A stretch of DNA of 64,000 nucleotides from Leptotrichia sp. oral taxon 223 (lineage in GTDB: Bacteria; Fusobacteriota; Fusobacteriia; Fusobacteriales; Leptotrichiaceae): the NCBI RefSeq assembly GCF_013394795.1, contig NZ_JABXYU010000001.1, forward strand, positions 930,001 to 994,000, given 5' to 3'. The translations under genes and the position numbers were made by a program. Numbering within the stretch: the first letter of the stretch is position 1; the number at the start of each line of letters is the position of its first letter. Shown here piece by piece: positions 4,445 through 29,302 of this stretch. The notes under the pieces are model-generated. The model was not told where the DNA came from and did not search any database. It was given only the letters and a program-made list of their open reading frames with translations.

Positions 4445-5647
4445 CTAATATAAATAAGCAATTCCACCTTCATCTTTTTTTAAGCTATATAAAACATATC
4501 TTATCGCATCCATTACATCATCATTTTCCTTAACTGGCTCATCATTCTTCCCCCAGACATAAGAATAAATCTCATCTTCAAATTTCCCTTTAAACGCTTT
4601 TTCTGTAATTTTTAAAGCATTTCTTTTATACATTGCACCAACCAAATCAATTCCTTCTTTTACATCTTTTTTTGCGTTTTCAGCATTTATTCCAAAATCT
4701 AATAACCCTTGTACATATTCAGTTCTAGCACTATCGCAAAATACTCTTGATACTTGATGTTCCTTATATTTTTGTAAAATCAGCATTTTCCAGTAATCAA
4801 AATACTTATGCTGTTTCGCTATAACTTCAACGATATAATAATTATCTTCAAAATCCACTCCAATAACTACCAATGTCCCATAATGCTCAAATCCCCAGTC
4901 AACTCCGATGTAATACTCTTTTATTTCGATATTTTCTATATTATTAATCACATTTTCTTTTTCAGAAAAATCAGCAAACACAACACCTTCCTGCGCAACC
5001 CACAATCCTAAAACATCTCTATCGTAAGTTGCTCCTCGTGGAGTTGTCTTTTTGATAGAATCCACATACTCTTTATTGAGAAAAACGTTATCATCTAACT
5101 TGAAATTACTGACTAAAATATTTAATCTGCCATTTTCTAATCTATCTCCAGCATTGTCGATATAATCTTTTTTTACAAAATGAGCTGGATTATCAGGATT
5201 GGTATCAATAAATATTTTTGCACCTTCTCCTGATGTTCTTGAAAACGCTTCTGTTATAAAAGTTTGATGCAATGCTGTTGCCTCATTTATATAAGTACCG
5301 TGAGAAGTCATCCCTCTCATCTTCCTCCAACTGTCTGCCTTTTCTCCACCGAATAAATAAACATTGTTTCCAAATAACTTAAAACTTCCGTCTTTTTTGG
5401 GCTTAAATTGCTTTCCTAACATTGTTTCCCAGTCGTTTAAAACGTTCCTCCAAATACTTCCGCTAGTTGCTCCAATTATGATGAAGTTAAGATTTTGATT
5501 GGCTAATTTTGCAATATGTGATAGCATCAGAAAATTATTTAAAAACGTTTTTCCGCTTCTTTTTGCTCCTGTTAAAATTGTTATTCTTGGCTGTTCTTTA
5601 TTAAATATTTTCAATACTTCATACTGTTTTGGAGTTAAATCATTCAT
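4445..5647 (-). CDS. terL: Phage terminase large subunit
   Basis: A 400-residue packaging motor and nuclease. Residues about 20-32 hold the Walker A motif (LTGAKRSGKTFLNNF). A conserved segment around MRGMTSHGTYINEATAL gives the Walker B acidic pair and coupling region. The C-terminal RNase H-like nuclease starts near EYYIGVDWGFEHYGTLVVIG, with acidic residues also at VFCDSARTEY and at DDVMDAIRY. It resembles the PBSX/XtmB group. The start overlaps the small terminase by eight bases. Confidence 0.95.
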   Translation of the reverse strand: MNDLTPKQYEVLKIFNKEQPRITILTGAKRSGKTFLNNFLMLSHIAKLANQNLNFIIIGATSGSIWRNVLNDWETMLGKQFKPKKDGSFKLFGNNVYLFGGEKADSWRKMRGMTSHGTYINEATALHQTFITEAFSRTSGEGAKIFIDTNPDNPAHFVKKDYIDNAGDRLENGRLNILVSNFKLDDNVFLNKEYVDSIKKTTPRGATYDRDVLGLWVAQEGVVFADFSEKENVINNIENIEIKEYYIGVDWGFEHYGTLVVIGVDFEDNYYIVEVIAKQHKYFDYWKMLILQKYKEHQVSRVFCDSARTEYVQGLLDFGINAENAKKDVKEGIDLVGAMYKRNALKITEKAFKGKFEDEIYSYVWGKNDEPVKENDDVMDAIRYVLYSLKKDEGGIAYLY

Positions 5648-6374
5648 TATTTTCCACCTTTTTAGTTATGTTTCTTAACAGCTGAATCACTTCTTTTTCT
5701 TTTTCTGAATCCTTGGCATCATCTTTTTTGATTTTAGCCTTTTCGATTTCTAATTTTTCTTTTTGTAACGCTTCCTCGGCAAGCTGTTTATCAATTTCAA
5801 GCACCTCATAAGCAGTAAGCATTTTTCCAGTCCTCATTAAATCATTTCCCATTTTTTTAATAGTTGTGTATGCTTTGTCATATTCTTGTACTTTTTTAGT
5901 ATCCATTTCTTGCGAATTTATCTCTTTAGTTGCTCTTACTACTAAATTTGCTTTTGCAGTTTCTGTCCCTTTTAGTATCCTGTATAATTCGCCTTTGTAA
6001 ACTTCTTCGACGATTTTTTCAAGATATTTTTCTGTACGTTCTTTTCTCAAATCTCTTGCATTTTTTGTTTTTCTGCTATAAGTACGTTCTGAAATGCCAT
6101 ACTCGGACATTATTTCTTGTTTGCTTTTGCCTTCCAAAATATCCTTTTGTATTTGTATTTCTTTATTGTCTACAGCCTTTTGCAACTGGTTGCAATTAGT
6201 GGTTGCATTTTTTCTCTTGCTGGTTGCAGTATTTTCTTTTTTTTTAATCCATTTTTCTCTGCTGATCCAGCTCTTAATAGTTCCTACTTTTTGATTATAT
6301 TTTTCTGACAAAACTCTTATACTTGTTCCATTCTCATATTTGTATCTGATTAATTCTTTTATGTTTTCATTCAT
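5640..6374 (-). CDS. terS: Phage terminase small subunit
   Basis: A protein of about 244 residues that recognises phage DNA for packaging. The N-terminus is a helix-turn-helix (RYKYENGTSIRVLSEKYN then VGTIKSWISREKW), and a second similar unit follows near GKSKQEIMSEYGISERTYS. The middle and C-terminus are lysine-rich helical oligomerisation segments. I chose ATG 6374, which has AAAGGAAAAGGTGGAA upstream, rather than GTG 6380. It overlaps terL and follows folE by 14 bases, so packaging genes seem cotranscribed with the base-modification genes. Confidence 0.85.
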   Translation of the reverse strand: MNENIKELIRYKYENGTSIRVLSEKYNQKVGTIKSWISREKWIKKKENTATSKRKNATTNCNQLQKAVDNKEIQIQKDILEGKSKQEIMSEYGISERTYSRKTKNARDLRKERTEKYLEKIVEEVYKGELYRILKGTETAKANLVVRATKEINSQEMDTKKVQEYDKAYTTIKKMGNDLMRTGKMLTAYEVLEIDKQLAEEALQKEKLEIEKAKIKKDDAKDSEKEKEVIQLLRNITKKVENNE

Positions 6375-6388
6375 TTCCACCTTTTCCT

Positions 6389-6958
6389 TTAACTTTTATT
6401 TCTATTATGCAGATTTTCATAACAGCCTGTTCTGTAAATTGTTCTGGTATCACTTCCTACACATTTGATTCCTCTCAATTCCATACACATATGCTTTGCG
6501 ATTATTTCAACTTCTACACCTAAACAATCTAAATTTTGCTGTATCGCATCTGCTATTTCTTTTGTTAATTTTTCTTGAATTTGCAATCTTTTTGCAAACA
6601 CTTCAACAACTCTAGGTATTTTAGATAATCCAACAACTCTACCATTTTTAGGTTTGTATTTGATATTTACAGTTCCATAAAAAGGCAACATATGGTGTTC
6701 GCACAAAGAATTGAAAGGTATGGATTCTATCGCTATTTCGTTTGAGTTATTGCTTTCAAAAGTAACTTTTAAAATTTCTGAAACTTCTTCATTATATCCT
6801 TTCGTCATTTCTTTAAATGCTTTCACAACTCTTTTCGGAGTATCTAATAAACCTTCTCTATTTGCATCTTCACCTAAAAAAAGTAATAATTTTTTTATTC
6901 CTTCTTTCGCTTCTATTTCACTTTCATCAATTTGTGCAATTGTATCGACACTTGCCAT
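6389..6958 (-). CDS. folE: GTP cyclohydrolase I, first step of phage 7-deazaguanine synthesis
   Basis: A 189-residue enzyme converting GTP to dihydroneopterin triphosphate. Zinc ligands are visible in SLCEHHMLPFYG (Cys, His) and in AKHMCMELRG (second Cys). The usual IPRVVEVFAKRLQIQEKLT segment is present. Length is normal for the family. The start ATG 6958 follows GAGAGGAAAAAGA and overlaps the end of queE by 46 bases. With queE and queD it makes 7-carboxy-7-deazaguanine; a folate role is less likely in this context. No queC is seen in the window. Confidence 0.93.
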   Translation of the reverse strand: MASVDTIAQIDESEIEAKEGIKKLLLFLGEDANREGLLDTPKRVVKAFKEMTKGYNEEVSEILKVTFESNNSNEIAIESIPFNSLCEHHMLPFYGTVNIKYKPKNGRVVGLSKIPRVVEVFAKRLQIQEKLTKEIADAIQQNLDCLGVEVEIIAKHMCMELRGIKCVGSDTRTIYRTGCYENLHNRNKS

Positions 6959-7527
6959 TCTTTTTCCTCTCTTTCGTTTAACTGTTGCCTAACTTTTGCT
7001 AAAGTTTCTAAATTTAAAAAATTAGCAGTTTCTGATTCTTCGACAGGAGATAGAAAAAATCTATCTGCTTCTATTTCATTCTCTATTTTTTTACAAAACT
7101 TAACGTATTCTTCAACATCATCATTGTCTACTACAATTCTTATTTCGTTAGCTTTTTTCAAATTTAATTTTACTAAATCTTTATAAAAGAATTTGGGACT
7201 TGTTGCTATATAATCTATAAATTCGTAACCAACATCATTTGTTCCGTTTGTTTCGATTCCTATCCAAAATCCTTTTTCTTTGAGCTTTTTACATAAAGGT
7301 TTTAAATCCTGCATCGTAGGTTCTCCACCTGTTATAATCACACTTTTACAATTTTCTTTTTCTATCTCATAAATTATATTTTCCAATTCTATTTTTTTAT
7401 ATTTATTCCAATCTGTATCACACCAAGGGCATTTTAAATTGCATTTCCCTAATCTTAAAAACACAACTTCTTTCCCAAAGTTAAATCCTTCTCCTTGAAT
7501 ACTTTTGAATATTTCTACTACTTTCAT
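6913..7527 (-). CDS. queE: 7-carboxy-7-deazaguanine synthase (radical SAM)
   Basis: A 204-residue radical SAM enzyme that contracts the ring of 6-carboxytetrahydropterin to 7-carboxy-7-deazaguanine. The sequence begins MKVVEIFKSIQGEGFNFGK, the usual QueE substrate-binding start, followed by the cluster motif CNLKCPWCDTDW (CxxxCxxC). The glycine-rich ITGGEPTMQ motif binds SAM. The ATG directly follows the queD stop at 7528, so the two are translationally linked. Length is typical of compact QueE proteins. Confidence 0.95.
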   Translation of the reverse strand: MKVVEIFKSIQGEGFNFGKEVVFLRLGKCNLKCPWCDTDWNKYKKIELENIIYEIEKENCKSVIITGGEPTMQDLKPLCKKLKEKGFWIGIETNGTNDVGYEFIDYIATSPKFFYKDLVKLNLKKANEIRIVVDNDDVEEYVKFCKKIENEIEADRFFLSPVEESETANFLNLETLAKVRQQLNEREEKEWQVSIQLHKLMKVK

Positions 7528-7962
7528 TTACTCCTCCGCATATCTTACAAACGATGTTTCTGTTTCATATAACGTAACTTCTATAAGTTTTATATTCTTT
7601 TTCAATAAAACTTCTTTTAATTTTTTAAAAATATATTTACTTATATTTTCAGCAGTGCTCCTGTTTTTTAATTCTAATATTTTTAAATTGTGTTTTTTTA
7701 ATACTCTTAATATATCTTTCTCTGTCTCTGAATCTGTCCCTACTATAAAGGCGTGATCGAATTTTTTTATGATTTCATCTTCTATTATCTTTTTTAAATC
7801 AGAAAAATCCATTATCATTCCTTCTGATGTTCCTATATTTTGCATTGTACCTTTACAAGTTACTATTAATTTGTATGTATGTCCGTGCAAATTTTTGCAT
7901 TGCCCTTTATGATTCGGCAATAAATGTGCTGCATCAAATTTAAACTTTTTATTTATTAACAT
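7528..7962 (-). CDS. queD: 6-carboxytetrahydropterin synthase
   Basis: A 144-residue enzyme turning dihydroneopterin triphosphate into 6-carboxytetrahydropterin. Zinc-binding histidines lie in FDAAHLLP and in NLHGHTYKL, and the catalytic cysteine is in GQCKNLHGH. The last conserved segment is YETETSFVRY near the C-terminus. It overlaps the upstream small membrane gene by 14 bases and abuts queE. The pterin-fold length is normal. Function as part of a phage DNA base-modification pathway is inferred from the neighbouring transferase gene. Confidence 0.95.
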   Translation of the reverse strand: MLINKKFKFDAAHLLPNHKGQCKNLHGHTYKLIVTCKGTMQNIGTSEGMIMDFSDLKKIIEDEIIKKFDHAFIVGTDSETEKDILRVLKKHNLKILELKNRSTAENISKYIFKKLKEVLLKKNIKLIEVTLYETETSFVRYAEE

Positions 7963-8176
7963 TTTTACCTCCGTTGTTATATAATTTATAAATATGTATG
8001 ATTATTAATATCGAATTTAATAACCAAACACTCAAAGCATTTGTTACCAAACCGTAAACAACAAATAATAAAGCTCCTATCACATTAATTATCCTTATGT
8101 GTTTTTCTTCAGAAAACGAAAAAGAAAGCAATACAAACAAAGTTGCAAGTATTCCTATAATTTCAATCATTTTCAA
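7949..8176 (-). CDS. Small YgjV-like membrane protein in the deazaguanine operon
   Basis: A 75-residue protein with about three membrane helices: residues 5-22 (IGILATLFVLLSFSF), 30-45 (NVIGALLFVVYGLV) and 50-65 (VWLLNSILIIIHIY). The pattern resembles YgjV/PQ-loop-like small membrane proteins. It overlaps both the transferase gene upstream (four bases) and queD downstream (14 bases), so it is translated with them. A role in precursor transport is possible but nothing in the sequence proves it. Confidence 0.75.
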   Translation of the reverse strand: MKMIEIIGILATLFVLLSFSFSEEKHIRIINVIGALLFVVYGLVTNALSVWLLNSILIIIHIYKLYNNGGKNVNK

Positions 8177-8922
8177 CTCCTTTCGATGTAATCTACGTAC
8201 TTATTCCATTCTTTTAAAGAATGTTTTATTACTACTCTTGTATCTATTTTTTTATTCAATTTATTTTTTGGTTTTTTAACTTCAACAATTTCTTTTCCGT
8301 TAAATTTGATTATCTGTCCTGTTCTTCCTGGAACTTTCCAACTAGTGCTGTCAGTTGTGTCAAAACGATATTTCAATATATCTTTAGGAGTAAAACCTAA
8401 TCCGTGAACTTTACAATTATTGCTGTGTGCTATTTTTATCAAAGGATTAAGATATTTGTATTCTGTTTTTTTTATGTGTTTTATCGCTAAACCTCCGATA
8501 GCAATAAAATCATATCCTTTAGATAAATTCACAAATTCTTCAAGCCCTCTGCTCTTGTGCCAAACAGGTATGCTTTTTTTATTTGTGCTTTTTTCTATAT
8601 ATTCCCTTATTTCTTTTACTTTTTCGTATCCTAAAATACTGTCCACATCTAGTTCAAAAAAATATTTGACATTCCATTTTTTAATAAATTCTATATACTC
8701 ATTAATATATGTTTCAAAATTTATTTTCGTTTTTTTAGAATTCATAAAAGTGAATGCGCCTGAATCTAACAAAAAATTTTCTAATTTTATTTTTTGTTCA
8801 ACAAATTTCATATAATCATTTTTATTTCCTCTCAAATAAAAATAACTTTCAAGGAGTCTTTTAGGCTTGACTCCTTCTTTTTCATATCCTTTTAACGCAG
8901 CTAAAAATATTTTTGCTCCCAT
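8173..8922 (-). CDS. dpdA: DpdA-like 7-deazaguanine DNA transglycosylase
   Basis: A protein of about 249 residues resembling phage DpdA, the TGT-related enzyme that exchanges guanine in DNA for a 7-deazaguanine base. It carries the DSGAFTFMN motif near residue 50, the FELDVDSILGYEKV segment with candidate nucleophile aspartates, an AIGGLA turn, and the DSTSWKVPGR segment typical of the group. I chose ATG 8922 because GGAAGGAAATATAAAA precedes it. It sits two bases after the ParB-like gene and ahead of queD, queE and folE. It lacks the RNA-binding domain of tRNA enzymes, as expected for phage forms. Confidence 0.82.
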   Translation of the reverse strand: MGAKIFLAALKGYEKEGVKPKRLLESYFYLRGNKNDYMKFVEQKIKLENFLLDSGAFTFMNSKKTKINFETYINEYIEFIKKWNVKYFFELDVDSILGYEKVKEIREYIEKSTNKKSIPVWHKSRGLEEFVNLSKGYDFIAIGGLAIKHIKKTEYKYLNPLIKIAHSNNCKVHGLGFTPKDILKYRFDTTDSTSWKVPGRTGQIIKFNGKEIVEVKKPKNKLNKKIDTRVVIKHSLKEWNKYVDYIERS

Positions 8923-8924
8923 TT

Positions 8925-9416
8925 TTATATTTCCTTCCCACAATGTGGACAAAGTTTTTTCTTTTCTTCTTTTTGCTCTTTTTCTTCTTCTGCAAAAAAA
9001 TCGTTAATGTCTACATTTTCAATTTCTAAAATATTTTCTAATTCCGCTTCATTAAAACCTAATAAATCTAAATCAAAGCCGTTTACCTCCAACTTATTCA
9101 ATTCATACTGTAACTTTTCAATATCAAATTCAGTATTCATTGTAAGTTTATTATGAGCAATAGCATAAGCTGTTTTCTGCTCCTCTGTTAAATGATTTAA
9201 CCTGATTACTTCAACTTCTGCATATCCAAGTTCTTTTAATGCTAAATATCTTCCGTGCCCTTCGATTATTATGCCTTTTTCATCAATTGCAATCGGATCA
9301 TTGAATCCAAATTCTCGAATACTGTTTTTAATCTGTTCAATTTGCCATTCAGGATGTTCTTTTGCATTTCCTGAATACTCAATTATTTCATTGATATTTA
9401 TTTTCTCAATCTTCAT
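8925..9416 (-). CDS. ParB/Srx-fold nuclease-like protein with C-terminal zinc knuckle
   Basis: A 163-residue protein. Residues 1-95 form a ParB N-terminal domain: ININEIIEYSGNAKEHPEWQ, then GIIIEGHGRYLALKELGY, the conserved GHxR-type loop. A glutamate-rich linker follows, and the protein ends CPHCGKEI, half of a zinc ribbon. ATG 9416 has AAAGGGGGCAAAA upstream. Phage proteins of this type often accompany DNA-modification enzymes. It is the first gene of the operon after a terminator, two bases before the dpdA-like gene. DNA recognition or guiding of modification is inferred. Confidence 0.8.
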   Translation of the reverse strand: MKIEKININEIIEYSGNAKEHPEWQIEQIKNSIREFGFNDPIAIDEKGIIIEGHGRYLALKELGYAEVEVIRLNHLTEEQKTAYAIAHNKLTMNTEFDIEKLQYELNKLEVNGFDLDLLGFNEAELENILEIENVDINDFFAEEEKEQKEEKKKLCPHCGKEI

Positions 9417-9800: not shown

Positions 9801-10481
9801 TTAAACAATAATTTTTTTTGATTTTTCCATTACTTCCTTTATGCCTTTCAAACAACTTTTCACATGTTTCAAATTATGATAGACTATATTACTTGCTCTT
9901 CGTTCAAATTGAAATCGTGCTTGCATAAAATACGACATATAAACTTTATGATTATTTAAAGTATCATTTGATAAAAATCCAATAAAATCTAATAACTCTT
10001 CTATATTTTCACCCTTTTTAAATAATTTAATTGCTTTAGTTATTTCGTTTTGTAATTCATCCAAACCTTTTTCAACGCTTTTATGTTTTGAATAATAATT
10101 TCCTAATCGACCATAATTAAGAACTCCACCATAGGTTTTATGTTCCTTTTTCGCTTTTTCTATATATGATCTCGTATTGTCTAGAGTGTTTTCTATCATT
10201 TGTTTAGTCTTTTGTTCTTTGTATCCTTTAACAAACCAGAAGTCTGCCCGTTCTTTAGGTGGAATAATTTTTCTAAAAGCTCCCAAAGAATCGCTTTCTA
10301 TTTCGCACTTTTCACAACAAAAAAAGTACTCATAGTCAGGCATTTTCTTTTTAAAAATTCTAAATTCTAAACATCCGTCATCAATAATTTTCATACCATT
10401 GTATTGTCTTATCGCTTTGATATAGTTCCCACACTTGCCACATCGAAAAAGTGTTTCGACAACTTTAAATTTCTTTTCCAT
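9801..10481 (-). CDS. Hypothetical phage protein with N-terminal zinc ribbon
   Basis: A 226-residue protein. Two CxxC-type pairs near residues 14-20 (CGKCG) and 55-60 (CCEKCE) form a likely treble-clef or zinc ribbon. The rest is helical and basic, with segments like KAIKLFKKGENIEELLDFIGFL. No enzyme motif is seen. The start follows AAGGAGACAAAA. It lies between two small membrane genes and the small TTG gene in the leftward operon. Nucleic-acid binding is a reasonable guess only. Confidence 0.7.
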   Translation of the reverse strand: MEKKFKVVETLFRCGKCGNYIKAIRQYNGMKIIDDGCLEFRIFKKKMPDYEYFFCCEKCEIESDSLGAFRKIIPPKERADFWFVKGYKEQKTKQMIENTLDNTRSYIEKAKKEHKTYGGVLNYGRLGNYYSKHKSVEKGLDELQNEITKAIKLFKKGENIEELLDFIGFLSNDTLNNHKVYMSYFMQARFQFERRASNIVYHNLKHVKSCLKGIKEVMEKSKKIIV

Positions 10482-10989: not shown

Positions 10990-11739
10990 CTATTTCTTTT
11001 TATAACTTTTCATCCAATCTTGAACAAACCACAATTGCCCGCAACCGCCACCAATTGTATCTTGTCCTGCTGGATCAAATATTCTAGTATTGTAACCTTT
11101 TATTTCTTCATCTGAAATATTATTACCGTCTATGCAATAATTCAAATAAACTGGACGTCCTGTATTTTCAGACCATTCGATTCCGTAATCCCTAATTTCT
11201 CTTAATGTTAATTTATTTTTATATGGTATTAATTTGTTTCTTTTTTCTTCATTTGCTTGATGTATAGAAAATTGTAAACCAATTTTATTAATTTCTATTG
11301 ATAATTTCATAAAATCATTTAATTCTTTATATTTTCTTAAACCTACTGTTGAAATTAATAATTGAGCATTTGGAAATAATTTATTTAATTTAACAATAGC
11401 TTCTTTAACTTGATAATAATTATCGAAAGGCTCTCCCATACTCATAAACATAATTTGAAATTTTTCAATTTCATTTGTATTTTTAATTTCATTTAATACT
11501 TTATTATTTATAACTATTTTTACTTGTTCAACAATTTCATCTGATGTTAAACTTCTAATAAATCTTTTTCCTGTTCCACAAAAAGTACAGCCCACCTTGC
11601 AACCACTTTGGACAGAGCAACAAATTACTGTTCTTTTTTTATAACTTTCATATTTGTACAAAACACTTTCTGCTACCATGTCTTGTTTAGTAAAAACAAA
11701 TTTACATACATTATGATCTTCTAAAATTCTATATTCCAT
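10990..11739 (-). CDS. RlmN/Cfr-like radical SAM methyltransferase, short phage form
   Basis: A 249-residue enzyme with the full catalytic set of the RlmN/Cfr family: the CCSVQSGCKVGCTFCGTG segment holds the CxxxCxxC cluster site plus the preceding conserved Cys, followed by SLTSDEIVEQV, the MSMGEPFDN motif, an ISTVGLRKY segment, a LQFSIHQANEE segment, and GGGCGQLWF, which contains the C-terminal methyl-carrier Cys. RlmN proteins are usually about 350 residues; here the N-terminal tRNA/rRNA-binding helical domain (about 90 residues) is missing. Host RlmN methylates A2503 of 23S rRNA and some tRNAs. The target of the phage form is unknown. Confidence 0.85.
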   Translation of the reverse strand: MEYRILEDHNVCKFVFTKQDMVAESVLYKYESYKKRTVICCSVQSGCKVGCTFCGTGKRFIRSLTSDEIVEQVKIVINNKVLNEIKNTNEIEKFQIMFMSMGEPFDNYYQVKEAIVKLNKLFPNAQLLISTVGLRKYKELNDFMKLSIEINKIGLQFSIHQANEEKRNKLIPYKNKLTLREIRDYGIEWSENTGRPVYLNYCIDGNNISDEEIKGYNTRIFDPAGQDTIGGGCGQLWFVQDWMKSYKKK

Positions 11740-14895: not shown

Positions 14896-15978
14896 CTAAA
14901 ATATTCTAATCTGTTCCGCTATAATCCTTTGTTTTCTTCTATGCTTCTTGAAAAATAAGTTTCTGAATATAGCTTCCAAAACTGTTGCCACTATGCTGTT
15001 TCCTGCCTGCTTGTATAATTGCGTATCCGAAATCCCCACAGACTTTGCGGCATAATAGTCCGTATCTCTGAATCCCATTAATCGCCAACATTCAAGTGGA
15101 GTTAATTTTCTTATTCTCGTGTTGTTGCTTAAAAAATTATTTTCCTGCCACGAACTCTTGGTTAAGACTGGAACTATATTTTCTTTTATTCCACCTTTGT
15201 TAAAACCGTGTCCTTTTTGAATTATGAAATTGTCAGTTGCCCTTTGCCCTGCTCTTGTTGTTATAGCAAACGCAGTATTACAATCTTCAAATTTTCTAGG
15301 ATTAAATTTTTCGCCCCTTGTAAATCCGTTTCTATTTTTCAAGTCAGAAAAACATTTCAGATATTTCTCAGATAAATAATACTTGTCATCTACCTTTTCC
15401 TCTAGCAAGTCTTTCATTTTAGATTTCAGTTCAACTGGCTTTGGAAATTTATAGTGCATATTCTCAAGACTACTTACCACAAATACTCTTTCCCTATTCT
15501 GTGGTATCCCGTAGTCTTTCGCATTCAACACTTCCCAGTTGCTGTAATATCCTAGACTGTTTAGAAAATTCAGCCATCTTTCAAAATCTTTGATGAACTT
15601 CTTGCCTACTAAATTCTTGACATTCTCTAATAGCAAGTGCTTTGGCAATGTTCCGTTTTCTTTTGCTTTCAGAAGCAATCTTTCAACTTCCAGTAAAAGT
15701 CCGCTTCTTGTATCCTTGCTTATCCCCTTCTGCTGCCCGGCAATGCTTAAATCCTGGCAAGGAAACGAATACGTGAGCAGGTCGCAGTATGGAAGTTTAT
15801 CGATTTTGGTTATATCTCCGAAATTTTTAACTTTTCCGTGTATTGCTTCATAAGACTTGTAAGCAAACTTGTCTATTTCGGAAATTCCTATGATTTCATA
15901 ATCGATTCCGATATTCCGTAAAGCCATAGCTTGACTTCCTATGCCGGCAAAAAGTTCTATGACTTTGATTTTTTGCAT
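14896..15978 (-). CDS. DNA (cytosine-5)-methyltransferase
   Basis: A 360-residue C5-methyltransferase. Motif I is ELFAGIGSQAMAL, motif IV has the catalytic cysteine in YSFPCQDLS, motif VI is LLLENVKNL, motif VIII is GIPQNRERVFVV, and motif X is KQAGNSIVATVLEAIF, so the enzyme looks intact. The region between VIII and IX, the target-recognition domain, is short. No restriction enzyme lies beside it, so it is an orphan methylase, probably protecting phage DNA. It sits between a DnaC-like loader and small phage genes. Recognition site cannot be read from the sequence. Confidence 0.95.
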   Translation of the reverse strand: MQKIKVIELFAGIGSQAMALRNIGIDYEIIGISEIDKFAYKSYEAIHGKVKNFGDITKIDKLPYCDLLTYSFPCQDLSIAGQQKGISKDTRSGLLLEVERLLLKAKENGTLPKHLLLENVKNLVGKKFIKDFERWLNFLNSLGYYSNWEVLNAKDYGIPQNRERVFVVSSLENMHYKFPKPVELKSKMKDLLEEKVDDKYYLSEKYLKCFSDLKNRNGFTRGEKFNPRKFEDCNTAFAITTRAGQRATDNFIIQKGHGFNKGGIKENIVPVLTKSSWQENNFLSNNTRIRKLTPLECWRLMGFRDTDYYAAKSVGISDTQLYKQAGNSIVATVLEAIFRNLFFKKHRRKQRIIAEQIRIF

Positions 15979-24165: not shown

Positions 24166-24963
24166 ATGGATAATAAAAATAAATATGTCAAGAAAATAAA
24201 ATGCGAGTTATTTAACGATAACTTTCAGAACTACAAAAAGTATCACATACCTAAAAAAGCGCAGCTTGTAATTGCAGATATTCCTTACAATTTGGGGAAC
24301 AATGCCTTTGCAAGCAGTCCAGAATGGTATGTGGATGGCGACAACAGAAAAGGCGAAAGCAAAAAGGCAAACTCAAGTTTTTTCAAGACTGATGTAAACT
24401 TCAACCTTGCCGAATATATGCACTTCTGCTCAAAACTATTAATAAAAGAGCCGAAAGAAAAAGGCAAAGCACCAGCAATGATAATATTCTGTGCATTCCA
24501 GCAAATTGAAACATTAGTGAAGTACGCTAAAAAGCACGGATTTAATAATTATTATCCACTAGTTTTCATAAAACATAGCAGCTCACAAGTGTTAAAAGCT
24601 AATATGAAAATAGTAGGGGCGACAGAATATGCTTTAGTATTTTACAGGGATAAATTACCGAAATTCAATAACAATGGCAAAATGATTAAGAACTGGTTTG
24701 AGTGGAAGCCGGATTCAAAATCAATATATCCAAAAGTGCACCCAACACAAAAGCCGATAAACTTGTTAAAAACATTAATAAGAATATTTACAGATCCTGG
24801 AGATACTGTAATTGATCCAGTCGCCGGAAGTGGAAGCACATTAAGAGCAGCGAGAGAACTGAATAGAAATAGCTACGGATTTGAAGTAGAAAAAGAGTTT
24901 TATAAAAAAGCAACTACAGAAATGTTAAGAGAGGACGAATTAAAGCAATTAAATTTATTTTAG
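24166..24963 (+). CDS. DNA amino-methyltransferase, beta class (N6-A or N4-C)
   Basis: A 265-residue methyltransferase. Motif IV is ADIPYNLGNN near residue 38 (the usual DPPY appears as DIPY), and motif I is DPVAGSGSTLRAA near the end, so motif order (IV first, I last) is that of the beta class. HPTQKPINLLKTLI lies just before motif I, as normal. No restriction partner is present, so it probably protects phage DNA or regulates. The start follows AGGAGGAAT. An inverted-repeat element lies 33 bases upstream. Confidence 0.9.
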   Translation: MDNKNKYVKKIKCELFNDNFQNYKKYHIPKKAQLVIADIPYNLGNNAFASSPEWYVDGDNRKGESKKANSSFFKTDVNFNLAEYMHFCSKLLIKEPKEKGKAPAMIIFCAFQQIETLVKYAKKHGFNNYYPLVFIKHSSSQVLKANMKIVGATEYALVFYRDKLPKFNNNGKMIKNWFEWKPDSKSIYPKVHPTQKPINLLKTLIRIFTDPGDTVIDPVAGSGSTLRAARELNRNSYGFEVEKEFYKKATTEMLREDELKQLNLF

Positions 24964-27838: not shown

Positions 27839-29194
27839 ATGAAAGCGATTATATATGCAAGAGTTAGTACAGAAATGCAAGAAGAGGGGCGTTCACTTGA
27901 GTTCCAGATAAAAAAATGTGAAGACTTTTGTAAAATGAGCGGTTATAAGTTAAAAGAAGTTATACAGGACGTAGAAAGCGGAGGTAATGACAACCGTGAG
28001 GGCTTTCTTAAATTACAGCAGGAAATCAAAAAGAAATCATTTGATGTACTTGTAGTTTATGAGAGTTCCCGTATCTCCCGTATAACTTTAACTATGCTGA
28101 ATTTTGTTTTAGAATTACAAAAAAGCAATATAAAGTTTGTATCTATTTCACAATCTGAAATAAACACAACAACCCCTACCGGTATGTTATTCTTTCAAAT
28201 ATTTGCCGTGCTAGCAGATTACGAAAGAAAACAAATATCAATGAGGGTAAAATCAAATAAATGGGCTAGAGCTAAAGCTGGAATATGGCAAGGTGGAAAT
28301 ATTCCAATTGGCTATAAAAAAGACGAACACAATAATATTGTAATAGATCCTGAAACTTCTGAAGATGTAATAAGTATTTTCAATACATACTTAAATACTA
28401 AAAGTTTGTCCGAAACTGCAAATATCTTTAATAGAAATATATCATCCATTAAATGGATTCTACAAAATGAGTTTTATATCGGCAATCTTATGTATGGTAG
28501 AAAAGAAAACAATATTAATACTGGAGAAGTTAAGATAAACAAAGAAATAACAATATTCAAAGGAAATCACGAAGCATTAATAAGCGAAGAAGTGTTTAGG
28601 GAAGCGCAACGGCAAATGTTATTTAAGCAACGTGTAATACGCAAAGAAGGCAAATTTTTATTCACAGGCATATTAGAGTGTACCTGTGGCGGTAAAATGT
28701 TTAAAAATGGCGTTAATTACAGATGTGATAAATGTAAAAAGGCAATCTCTATGAAAAAGGCTGAAAAATTTATAATACATAAACTGTTAAATTTAAAAGA
28801 ATTAGAATTTTTAAATGAAAAGCCTAATTTAGAAAAGTATAAAAAAGATAGAGAAAATATAGACAAGCAAATCAAAAAAATAGATAGAGAAAGAACTAAG
28901 TATTTAGAATTATTTACTAAAGAATTGATAAATGAATTTGAATTAAATGATAAACTTGAGGAACTGAAAAATAGAAAACGAGTATTTGAAGATTCCTTGA
29001 ATGATATTGATAGAATAATAAAAGATAAAACAATAAGCGAAGAAAAATTGGACAATATAAAAATCTTAAAAGAAGTGTTAGAAAATATGGATGAAACAGA
29101 TAGATATAATTTGTTTTTGATGTTCAGAATGCTAATAAAAAGGGTGAAAATAAAAAAATATCAACCTTTAGAAGTGCTGATATTACTGAACTAA
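27839..29194 (+). CDS. int: Large serine integrase
   Basis: A 451-residue site-specific recombinase. The catalytic domain holds the nucleophile serine in YARVSTEMQEEGRSLEFQ, with VVYESSRISRITLTMLNF supplying arginines and RKQISMRVKSN ending it. A recombinase domain follows around GGNIPIGYKKDEHN. The zinc ribbon is CTCGGKMFKNGVNYRCDKC, and a long coiled coil occupies residues 320-410, the direction-control element of large serine integrases. It is the last phage gene, ending 25 bases before tRNA-Leu. Length is typical (450-500). Confidence 0.95.
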   Translation: MKAIIYARVSTEMQEEGRSLEFQIKKCEDFCKMSGYKLKEVIQDVESGGNDNREGFLKLQQEIKKKSFDVLVVYESSRISRITLTMLNFVLELQKSNIKFVSISQSEINTTTPTGMLFFQIFAVLADYERKQISMRVKSNKWARAKAGIWQGGNIPIGYKKDEHNNIVIDPETSEDVISIFNTYLNTKSLSETANIFNRNISSIKWILQNEFYIGNLMYGRKENNINTGEVKINKEITIFKGNHEALISEEVFREAQRQMLFKQRVIRKEGKFLFTGILECTCGGKMFKNGVNYRCDKCKKAISMKKAEKFIIHKLLNLKELEFLNEKPNLEKYKKDRENIDKQIKKIDRERTKYLELFTKELINEFELNDKLEELKNRKRVFEDSLNDIDRIIKDKTISEEKLDNIKILKEVLENMDETDRYNLFLMFRMLIKRVKIKKYQPLEVLILLN

Positions 29195-29222
29195 TCCACC
29201 ATTTCGTGTGGGCTTTTATGGT
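29195..29222. other. Probable right boundary of the prophage (att region)
   Basis: The integrase stop is at 29194 and chromosomal tRNA-Leu begins with its 3' CCA at 29219. The crossover must be in or near this short stretch. CCAC-cattttcgt-like pairing with GTGG and GCTTTT gives a weak hairpin, possibly an integrase terminator. The left att copy is outside the window, so the core cannot be defined. Confidence 0.45.
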
Positions 29223-29302
29223 GCGAAAGGTGGGACTCGAACCCACATGTCGAAGACGCTAGATCCTAAGTCTAGTGCGTATACCAATTTCGCCACTCTC
29301 GC
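29219..29302 (-). tRNA. tRNA-Leu (anticodon TAG)
   Basis: Minus strand: acceptor GCGAGAG pairs with CTTTCGC, CCA is encoded, the anticodon stem-loop is CTAGA-ctTAGga-TCTAG, and a variable arm is present as for leucine. T-loop GGTTCGAGTCCC. It is the last of five tRNAs on this strand and abuts the prophage. Confidence 0.95.

What the first reader, a model, noticed from the sequence alone, without database searches (positions are those of the whole stretch)
6389..8922. Phage deazaguanine operon with FolE, QueE, QueD and DpdA-like genes but no QueC
The four genes, with overlaps or tiny gaps, give the enzymes for GTP to 7-carboxy-7-deazaguanine (CDG) plus a DNA transferase. QueC, which would turn CDG into preQ0, is not in the window. 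Phage DNA could therefore carry CDG itself or a further derivative, or the phage uses host QueC. Known phages use preQ0, preQ1, archaeosine-like, CDG and plain deazaguanine bases, so the product here is open. The operon continues straight into terminase, suggesting modification is timed with packaging.
Basis: partly seen in the sequence, partly recalled or inferred. Interest (0 to 1): 0.75.

Follow-up and report, generated by a model that had tools for sequence, protein, structure and literature searches.

The report
Prophage 7-deazaguanine DNA operon without QueC
A dormant virus in a bacterial genome carries genes to make the modified base 7-carboxy-7-deazaguanine and swap it into its own DNA; neither virus nor bacterium has the enzyme for the usual next step, so the viral DNA probably carries the acid itself or a derivative of it.

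Summary
Window 6389-8922 (minus strand) holds intact DpdA, QueD, QueE and FolE genes in one tight operon that runs into TerS-TerL, with no QueC. The operon lies in a ~49-kb prophage. The host (99.3% complete) has no QueC, QueF or chromosomal QueD, but has Tgt, QueA and a YhhQ-type transporter. Host QueC is thus excluded; dCDG or a non-amidated derivative is the best prediction (about 0.5).

DpdA has the TGT fold and is 9g-type. In 138 distinct relatives ParB is next to DpdA in 104 of 112 and TerL downstream in 106 of 108. The dpdA-queD interval is a swappable slot: QueC, a QueC-like protein, a methyltransferase-like protein, mem75 or nothing. QueC-less pathways recur and look independent. mem75-like genes lie inside the cassette in 13 of 13 relatives that have one. 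A DpdA pocket-loop difference tracks QueC but fails phylogenetic correction. No chemistry was measured. dCDG and dDG are known phage bases (recalled; that paper was not held), so this is a variant of a known kind.

The parts
8925..9416 (-). ParB-N-like DNA-binding protein, probable partner or targeting subunit of DpdA (role inferred)
   Evidence: phrog_620 E 3e-57 and the ParB part of phrog_498 (DNA methyltransferase), PF02195 weak. ParB adjacent to dpdA in 104 of 112 relatives, most often overlapping by 4 nt.
8173..8922 (-). dpdA: DNA-guanine transglycosylase, 9g type, 249 aa, much shorter than tRNA Tgt
   Evidence: phrog_887 E 1e-47, a family that holds phage 9g DpdA at E 7e-98. AlphaFold pLDDT 91, the 50 PDB matches listed are all TGTs, best E 4e-7. 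DSGA, ELDxD, GG and DS motifs conserved; 9g His196 equivalent kept.
7949..8170 (-). mem75: 73-aa, three-helix membrane protein, half of a YgjV (PQ-loop/SemiSWEET-like), sits where QueC sits in relatives
   Evidence: PF10688 profile positions 89-153, 23.3 bits against cut-off 23.5; predicted three helices, pLDDT 89; homologues in 13 related cassettes, always between DpdA and TerL.
7528..7962 (-). queD: 6-carboxytetrahydropterin synthase
   Evidence: TIGR03367 98 bits against cut-off 89; Cys...HGH and other motif residues kept.
6913..7527 (-). queE: 7-carboxy-7-deazaguanine synthase, radical SAM
   Evidence: phrog_2076 E 9e-42; CxxxCxxC, QGEG and GGEP motifs kept.
6389..6958 (-). folE: GTP cyclohydrolase I
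   Evidence: PF01227 E 8e-62, TIGR00063 over cut-off. The host has its own FolE elsewhere.
5640..6380 (-). terminase small subunit (probable)
   Evidence: phrog_25288 E 1e-82 (unknown function), weak phrog_509 TerS; directly between folE and TerL.
4445..5647 (-). terminase large subunit
   Evidence: TIGR01547 182 bits against cut-off 105.
27839..29194 (+). serine integrase of the prophage
   Evidence: PF00239 E 1.5e-34 and PF07508.
29218..29229 (.). right att core ATGGTGCGAAAG at the 3' end of tRNA-Leu; the other copy is at G000:C1:910276 (L004:276), giving a prophage of ~49 kb
   Evidence: tRNA; host truA just beyond the left core.

Best explanation
FolE, QueD and QueE turn GTP into CDG. DpdA, helped by the ParB-like protein, then swaps guanine for the deazaguanine base in phage DNA after replication. 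Since neither phage nor host has QueC, the base inserted is most likely CDG itself (2'-deoxy-7-carboxy-7-deazaguanosine in the DNA). Shown by sequence: the intact genes, the absence of QueC, the TGT fold of DpdA, the conserved cassette. Inferred: enzyme activities, the base inserted, the ParB role, protection from restriction. mem75 is a recurrent accessory of these cassettes; I guess that it moves a deazaguanine or pterin compound across the membrane, since it most often stands beside YhhQ, but this is weak.
For: Intact pathway to CDG with catalytic motifs. No QueC, QueF or second QueD in a 99.3% complete genome. DpdA model is a TGT of the 9g type. QueC-less pathway cassettes recur: window, L032, L072, L128, L134, L174, L190, also L142/L149 and Mycobacterium phage Bipper. 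No PF06508 in the records of L032, L072 and Bipper or of L128, L134, L174 and L190; L142/L149 show none in the DNA held. On the best tree each is a separate change (7 changes for 7 rows). In L032, L072 and L128 DpdA abuts QueD with nothing in the slot, so a pathway ending at CDG is an arrangement met more than once. Hutinet et al. 2019 (PMC6884629) already noted that Bipper could carry the QueC substrate.
Against: No nucleoside has been measured. A decarboxylase (DpdL, recalled from Cui et al. 2023, paper not held) or another tailoring enzyme of unknown sequence could act on CDG; unknown prophage ORFs remain (e.g. 9801-10481). The host's YhhQ-type transporter could supply preQ0 or preQ1 to DpdA. 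The L141/L142 pair has nearly the same DpdA with QueC in one and a methyltransferase-like gene in the other, so DpdA may not be strict about its base.
Confidence: 0.5

Rival explanations
1. CDG is decarboxylated (or otherwise tailored) and the DNA carries plain 7-deazaguanine or another CDG derivative, made by an unrecognised phage or host enzyme.
For: dDG and a CDG decarboxylase (DpdL) were reported in phages (recalled, Cui et al. 2023; only its title and reference seen here). In related cassettes the slot holds a methyltransferase-like protein (L134, L142, L174, L190), so tailoring CDG directly is plausible.
Against: No decarboxylase or methyltransferase-like gene in the operon; the methyltransferase HMM finds nothing in the prophage; Pfam scans of other prophage ORFs show no decarboxylase. 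L032, L072 and L128 have no extra gene in the slot.
Confidence: 0.22
2. DpdA uses preQ1 or preQ0 salvaged by the host, and QueD/QueE/FolE are leftovers or boosters.
For: Host has Tgt, QueA and a YhhQ-type transporter and lacks its own preQ0 pathway, so it looks like a salvager. Many relatives are salvage-type: DpdA-YhhQ without QueDE, including Fusobacterium phage phiFN37.
Against: All three synthesis genes are intact with overlapping frames and conserved motifs, unlike a decaying operon; the prophage itself has no YhhQ.
Confidence: 0.15
3. The operon is inactive or not about DNA (e.g. pterin or folate supply, or tRNA queuosine).
For: No chemistry shown; FolE also serves folate (general knowledge).
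Against: Host cannot turn CDG into preQ1 (no QueC, QueF); folate would not need QueD/QueE/DpdA; DpdA stands in this cassette with ParB and TerL throughout the 138 relatives.
Confidence: 0.08

Closest known systems
Mycobacterium phage Bipper (KU728633)
   Same: Temperate; dpdA - one small gene - queD - queE - folE - one further gene - terminase, and no QueC in the 77.8-kb genome.
   Different: The slot gene is a 141-aa protein without Pfam match, not mem75; DpdA is only distantly related.
QueC-carrying cassettes in IMG/VR (e.g. L010, L015) and Enterobacteria phage 9g
   Same: Same DpdA family (phrog_887), same FolE/QueD/QueE; the L010 type has the same gene order apart from the slot.
   Different: They carry QueC (9g a long one, 5207-6622), so preQ0 or its derivatives are expected.
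Fusobacterium phage phiFN37 (OR492271)
   Same: ParB-like gene next to DpdA, 44-46% identical DpdA.
   Different: Salvage version: DUF6884 protein and YhhQ-type transporter, no QueD/QueE/FolE in the stretch read.
Cassettes L017/L018 with mem75
   Same: mem75 57% identical over 61 residues, in the dpdA operon.
   Different: No synthesis genes; YhhQ precedes mem75.

Membership tests
Phage DpdA, 9g type (DpdA1) | TGT fold | tested here: met
   AlphaFold model pLDDT 91.2; Foldseek PDB, the 50 matches listed all TGT, best E 3.8e-7
Phage DpdA, 9g type (DpdA1) | Conserved catalytic aspartates (DSG motif and nucleophile Asp) | tested here: met
   DSGA and the DS motif invariant in the family alignments; mapping to TGT by motif, hhalign to host Tgt aligns DSGA with DSGG but with low probability
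Phage DpdA, 9g type (DpdA1) | Histidine equivalent to 9g His196, absent in DpdA2 (PMC6884629) | tested here: met
   KVHGLGFT aligns with 9g KVHGFGIT, H196
Phage DpdA, 9g type (DpdA1) | Inserts a 7-deazaguanine base into DNA | not testable with these tools
   needs LC-MS or in vitro assay
dPreQ0-type phage pathway | QueC in phage (or available from host) | tested here: not met
   No PF06508 protein except ThiI and MnmA in the genome; QueC HMM negative on prophage
dCDG-type phage pathway | FolE, QueD, QueE, DpdA present and QueC absent | tested here: met
dCDG-type phage pathway | dCDG in phage DNA | not testable with these tools
   no mass spectrometry
dDG-type phage pathway | CDG decarboxylase DpdL | not tested
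YgjV / PQ-loop (SemiSWEET-like) small membrane proteins (mem75) | PF10688 match above cut-off | tested here: inconclusive
   23.3 bits against 23.5; matches only the C-terminal half; Fusobacteriota homologues are mostly full-length frames of 204-221 aa, one of 80 aa
YgjV / PQ-loop (SemiSWEET-like) small membrane proteins (mem75) | Three-helix SemiSWEET fold | tested here: inconclusive
   three helices predicted; SemiSWEET/SWEET among best Foldseek hits but E 0.9 or worse

The most novel reading that the evidence does not exclude
The dpdA-queD interval is a swappable tailoring slot, and this phage dispenses with amidation altogether: its DNA carries CDG, with DpdA's pocket loop (GGLAIK instead of GGIVT/S) tuned to a non-preQ0 base and a dedicated small membrane transporter (mem75) in place of QueC. 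In relatives the slot holds a methyltransferase-like protein, which would predict a new base such as a CDG methyl ester.
Probability: 0.2. Interest if true: 0.75.

Novelty: new variant of a known kind. Interest (0 to 1): 0.52.

Why it matters
It gives a clean test case for what a phage does with a 7-deazaguanine pathway that stops at CDG, because host QueC is ruled out by genome content. The comparative part shows that the last step of the pathway is exchanged as a module (QueC, methyltransferase-like protein, membrane protein or nothing) while ParB-DpdA stays fixed, so phage bases may be predictable from one slot. mem75 and the ParB-like protein are two candidate components that can be tested directly.

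Tried and rejected
Host QueC: rejected, the two PF06508 hits are ThiI and MnmA. DpdA2 membership: rejected, the His196 equivalent is kept and phrog_887 holds 9g DpdA. DpdA pocket loop as proof of specificity: the three loop positions rank at the top of a scan of all 247 positions (A at position 144 in 2 of 83 QueC-positive and 18 of 49 QueC-negative loci), but of 7 independent, supported pairs about 2 go the same way, the rest do not differ, and significance is not reached; L141 and L142 share the loop with and without QueC. Kept as a lead only. Loop mapping by hhalign to host Tgt: right motifs aligned but low probability. mem75 as a DpdA-specific mark: two GenBank phages with a homologue show no DpdA nearby, so it is enriched, not diagnostic. 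mem75 in the host: only the prophage copy was found; other Fusobacteriota mostly have full-length YgjV; I did not examine their neighbourhood. PADLOC: only weak viperin hits to QueE (radical SAM background) and a Type II methyltransferase model matching the ParB-like protein. Sequence search of the PDB with the DpdA profile found no TGT, only chance Homer hits; the fold comparison did. The key paper on dCDG/dDG (Cui et al. 2023) was not held.

Full report
Observation. Spacing is operon-like: ParB/DpdA and DpdA/mem75 2 bp apart, mem75/QueD overlap 14 bp, QueD/QueE touch, QueE/FolE overlap 46 bp, FolE/TerS 8 bp (dpdA is taken here from the ATG at 8922). FolE, QueD and QueE keep their motif residues in alignment with phage 9g, Bipper and metagenomic phages.

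Setting. The window is C1:930001-994000 of a 2.58-Mb, 99.3% complete genome. A serine integrase ends next to tRNA-Leu; the 12-bp core ATGGTGCGAAAG occurs at window 29218 and at C1:910276, with host truA beyond, so the prophage is ~49 kb. It has capsid, tape-measure, baseplate J and endolysin genes. Among 98 genomes of the phylum only this one encodes this DpdA.

QueC. PF06508 over the whole genome gives only ThiI and MnmA. QueD exists only in the prophage and QueF is absent, while Tgt, QueA, a YhhQ-family transporter and a second FolE are present. The host therefore looks like a queuosine-precursor salvager that cannot take CDG further.

DpdA. Pfam has no match and NCBIfam DpdA is weak, but phrog_887, which contains 9g DpdA, matches at E 1e-47. 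The AlphaFold model (pLDDT 91) is a TGT by Foldseek, bacterial and archaeosine TGTs alike. The histidine used to tell 9g-type DpdA from DpdA2 is kept (criterion from PMC6884629).

Relatives. Four scans of viral contigs, one of genome contigs and the phage records gave 138 distinct DpdA loci, the window included, annotated with HMMs built here from window and locus proteins. ParB is within 250 bp of DpdA in 104 of 112 loci with enough upstream sequence, 48 times with a 4-nt overlap; TerL is downstream in 106 of 108. Classes: synthesis with QueC 59; synthesis without QueC 7 (window, L032, L072, L128, L134, L174, L190; Bipper and L142/L149 are further cases); YhhQ salvage with QueC 24 and without 42; other 5. 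No PF06508 match was found in the records of the QueC-less loci tested, though most of these records are fragments. On the best tree the QueC-less loci are separate from one another.

The slot. Between dpdA and queD sit QueC, a QueC-like protein (L007, L022, L137), a methyltransferase-like protein (L134, L142, L174, L190; L190 just passes Methyltransf_23, L174 and L134 are below the cut-off, L142 was found by an HMM of the other three), mem75 (window), an unknown protein (Bipper) or nothing. L141 and L142 are 95.7% identical over a 3.6-kb stretch ending after dpdA and 99% over queE-folE, yet one has QueC-QueD and the other methyltransferase-QueD: a recent exchange at exactly this slot.

mem75. 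The family matches the second half of YgjV (PF10688), has three predicted helices, and its best PDB fold matches are SemiSWEETs without significance. It occurs in 13 related cassettes, all between DpdA and TerL, an interval that makes up 28% of the bases examined. Most of those also have YhhQ. In 50,697 phage records only two hits were found, neither with DpdA nearby in the DNA read. A transport role is a guess.

DpdA pocket. The loop after the conserved GG corresponds by motif to Leu231-Ala232-Val233 of Zymomonas Tgt, which lines the pocket of the 7-substituent and flips on preQ1 binding (PMC3660597). Over 247 positions this loop gives the strongest association with QueC presence, and the window has the form GGLAIK, rare among QueC-positive loci. 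The association does not survive phylogenetic pairing. It is a lead for mutagenesis, not evidence of the base.

Mechanism and verdict. Best reading: GTP to CDG by FolE, QueD, QueE; CDG put into phage DNA by DpdA with ParB help; product dCDG (0.5), with a decarboxylated or otherwise tailored CDG as chief rival (0.22) and salvage of preQ1/preQ0 next (0.15). A ParBc-domain protein is also reported near another phage base-modification enzyme, CmoX (PMC12783734), which fits a general targeting role, not tested. dCDG and dDG as phage bases are known (recalled from Cui et al. 2023), so the novelty is in the QueC-less configuration with host QueC excluded, the slot, and mem75.

Noticed in passing
L134:6890-7462, L142:6822-7394, L174:2198-2785, L190:1795-2361: A methyltransferase-like protein (VADYGGANG motif) occupies the QueC slot of QueC-less deazaguanine cassettes; it could make a methylated CDG base.
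   Followed up: partly
L141 and L142: Closely related phage stretches (96-99% identical around it) carry QueC plus QueD in one and a methyltransferase-like gene plus QueD in the other at the slot.
   Followed up: yes
L035, L047, L052, L053, L060, L073, L090, L095, L098: Salvage cassettes with YhhQ transporter and QueC but no QueD/QueE/FolE; the substrate of such a QueC is unclear (imported CDG?).
   Followed up: no
window 10990-11739: RlmN/Cfr-like radical SAM protein of 249 aa, short at the N-terminus, ending in a GGGCGQL motif, in the prophage upstream of the operon.
   Followed up: no
window 14896-15978 and 24166-24963: The prophage also carries a C5-cytosine and an N6/N4 DNA methyltransferase, so its DNA may be modified in several ways.
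   Followed up: no
L021 (Fusobacterium phage phiFN37), L009: DUF6884 (YaaA-like) protein between DpdA and YhhQ in salvage cassettes; function in this setting unknown.
   Followed up: no
L007:10687-11646: QueC-like protein with a C-terminal extension in the slot of a cassette in a Clostridia metagenome-assembled genome.
   Followed up: no
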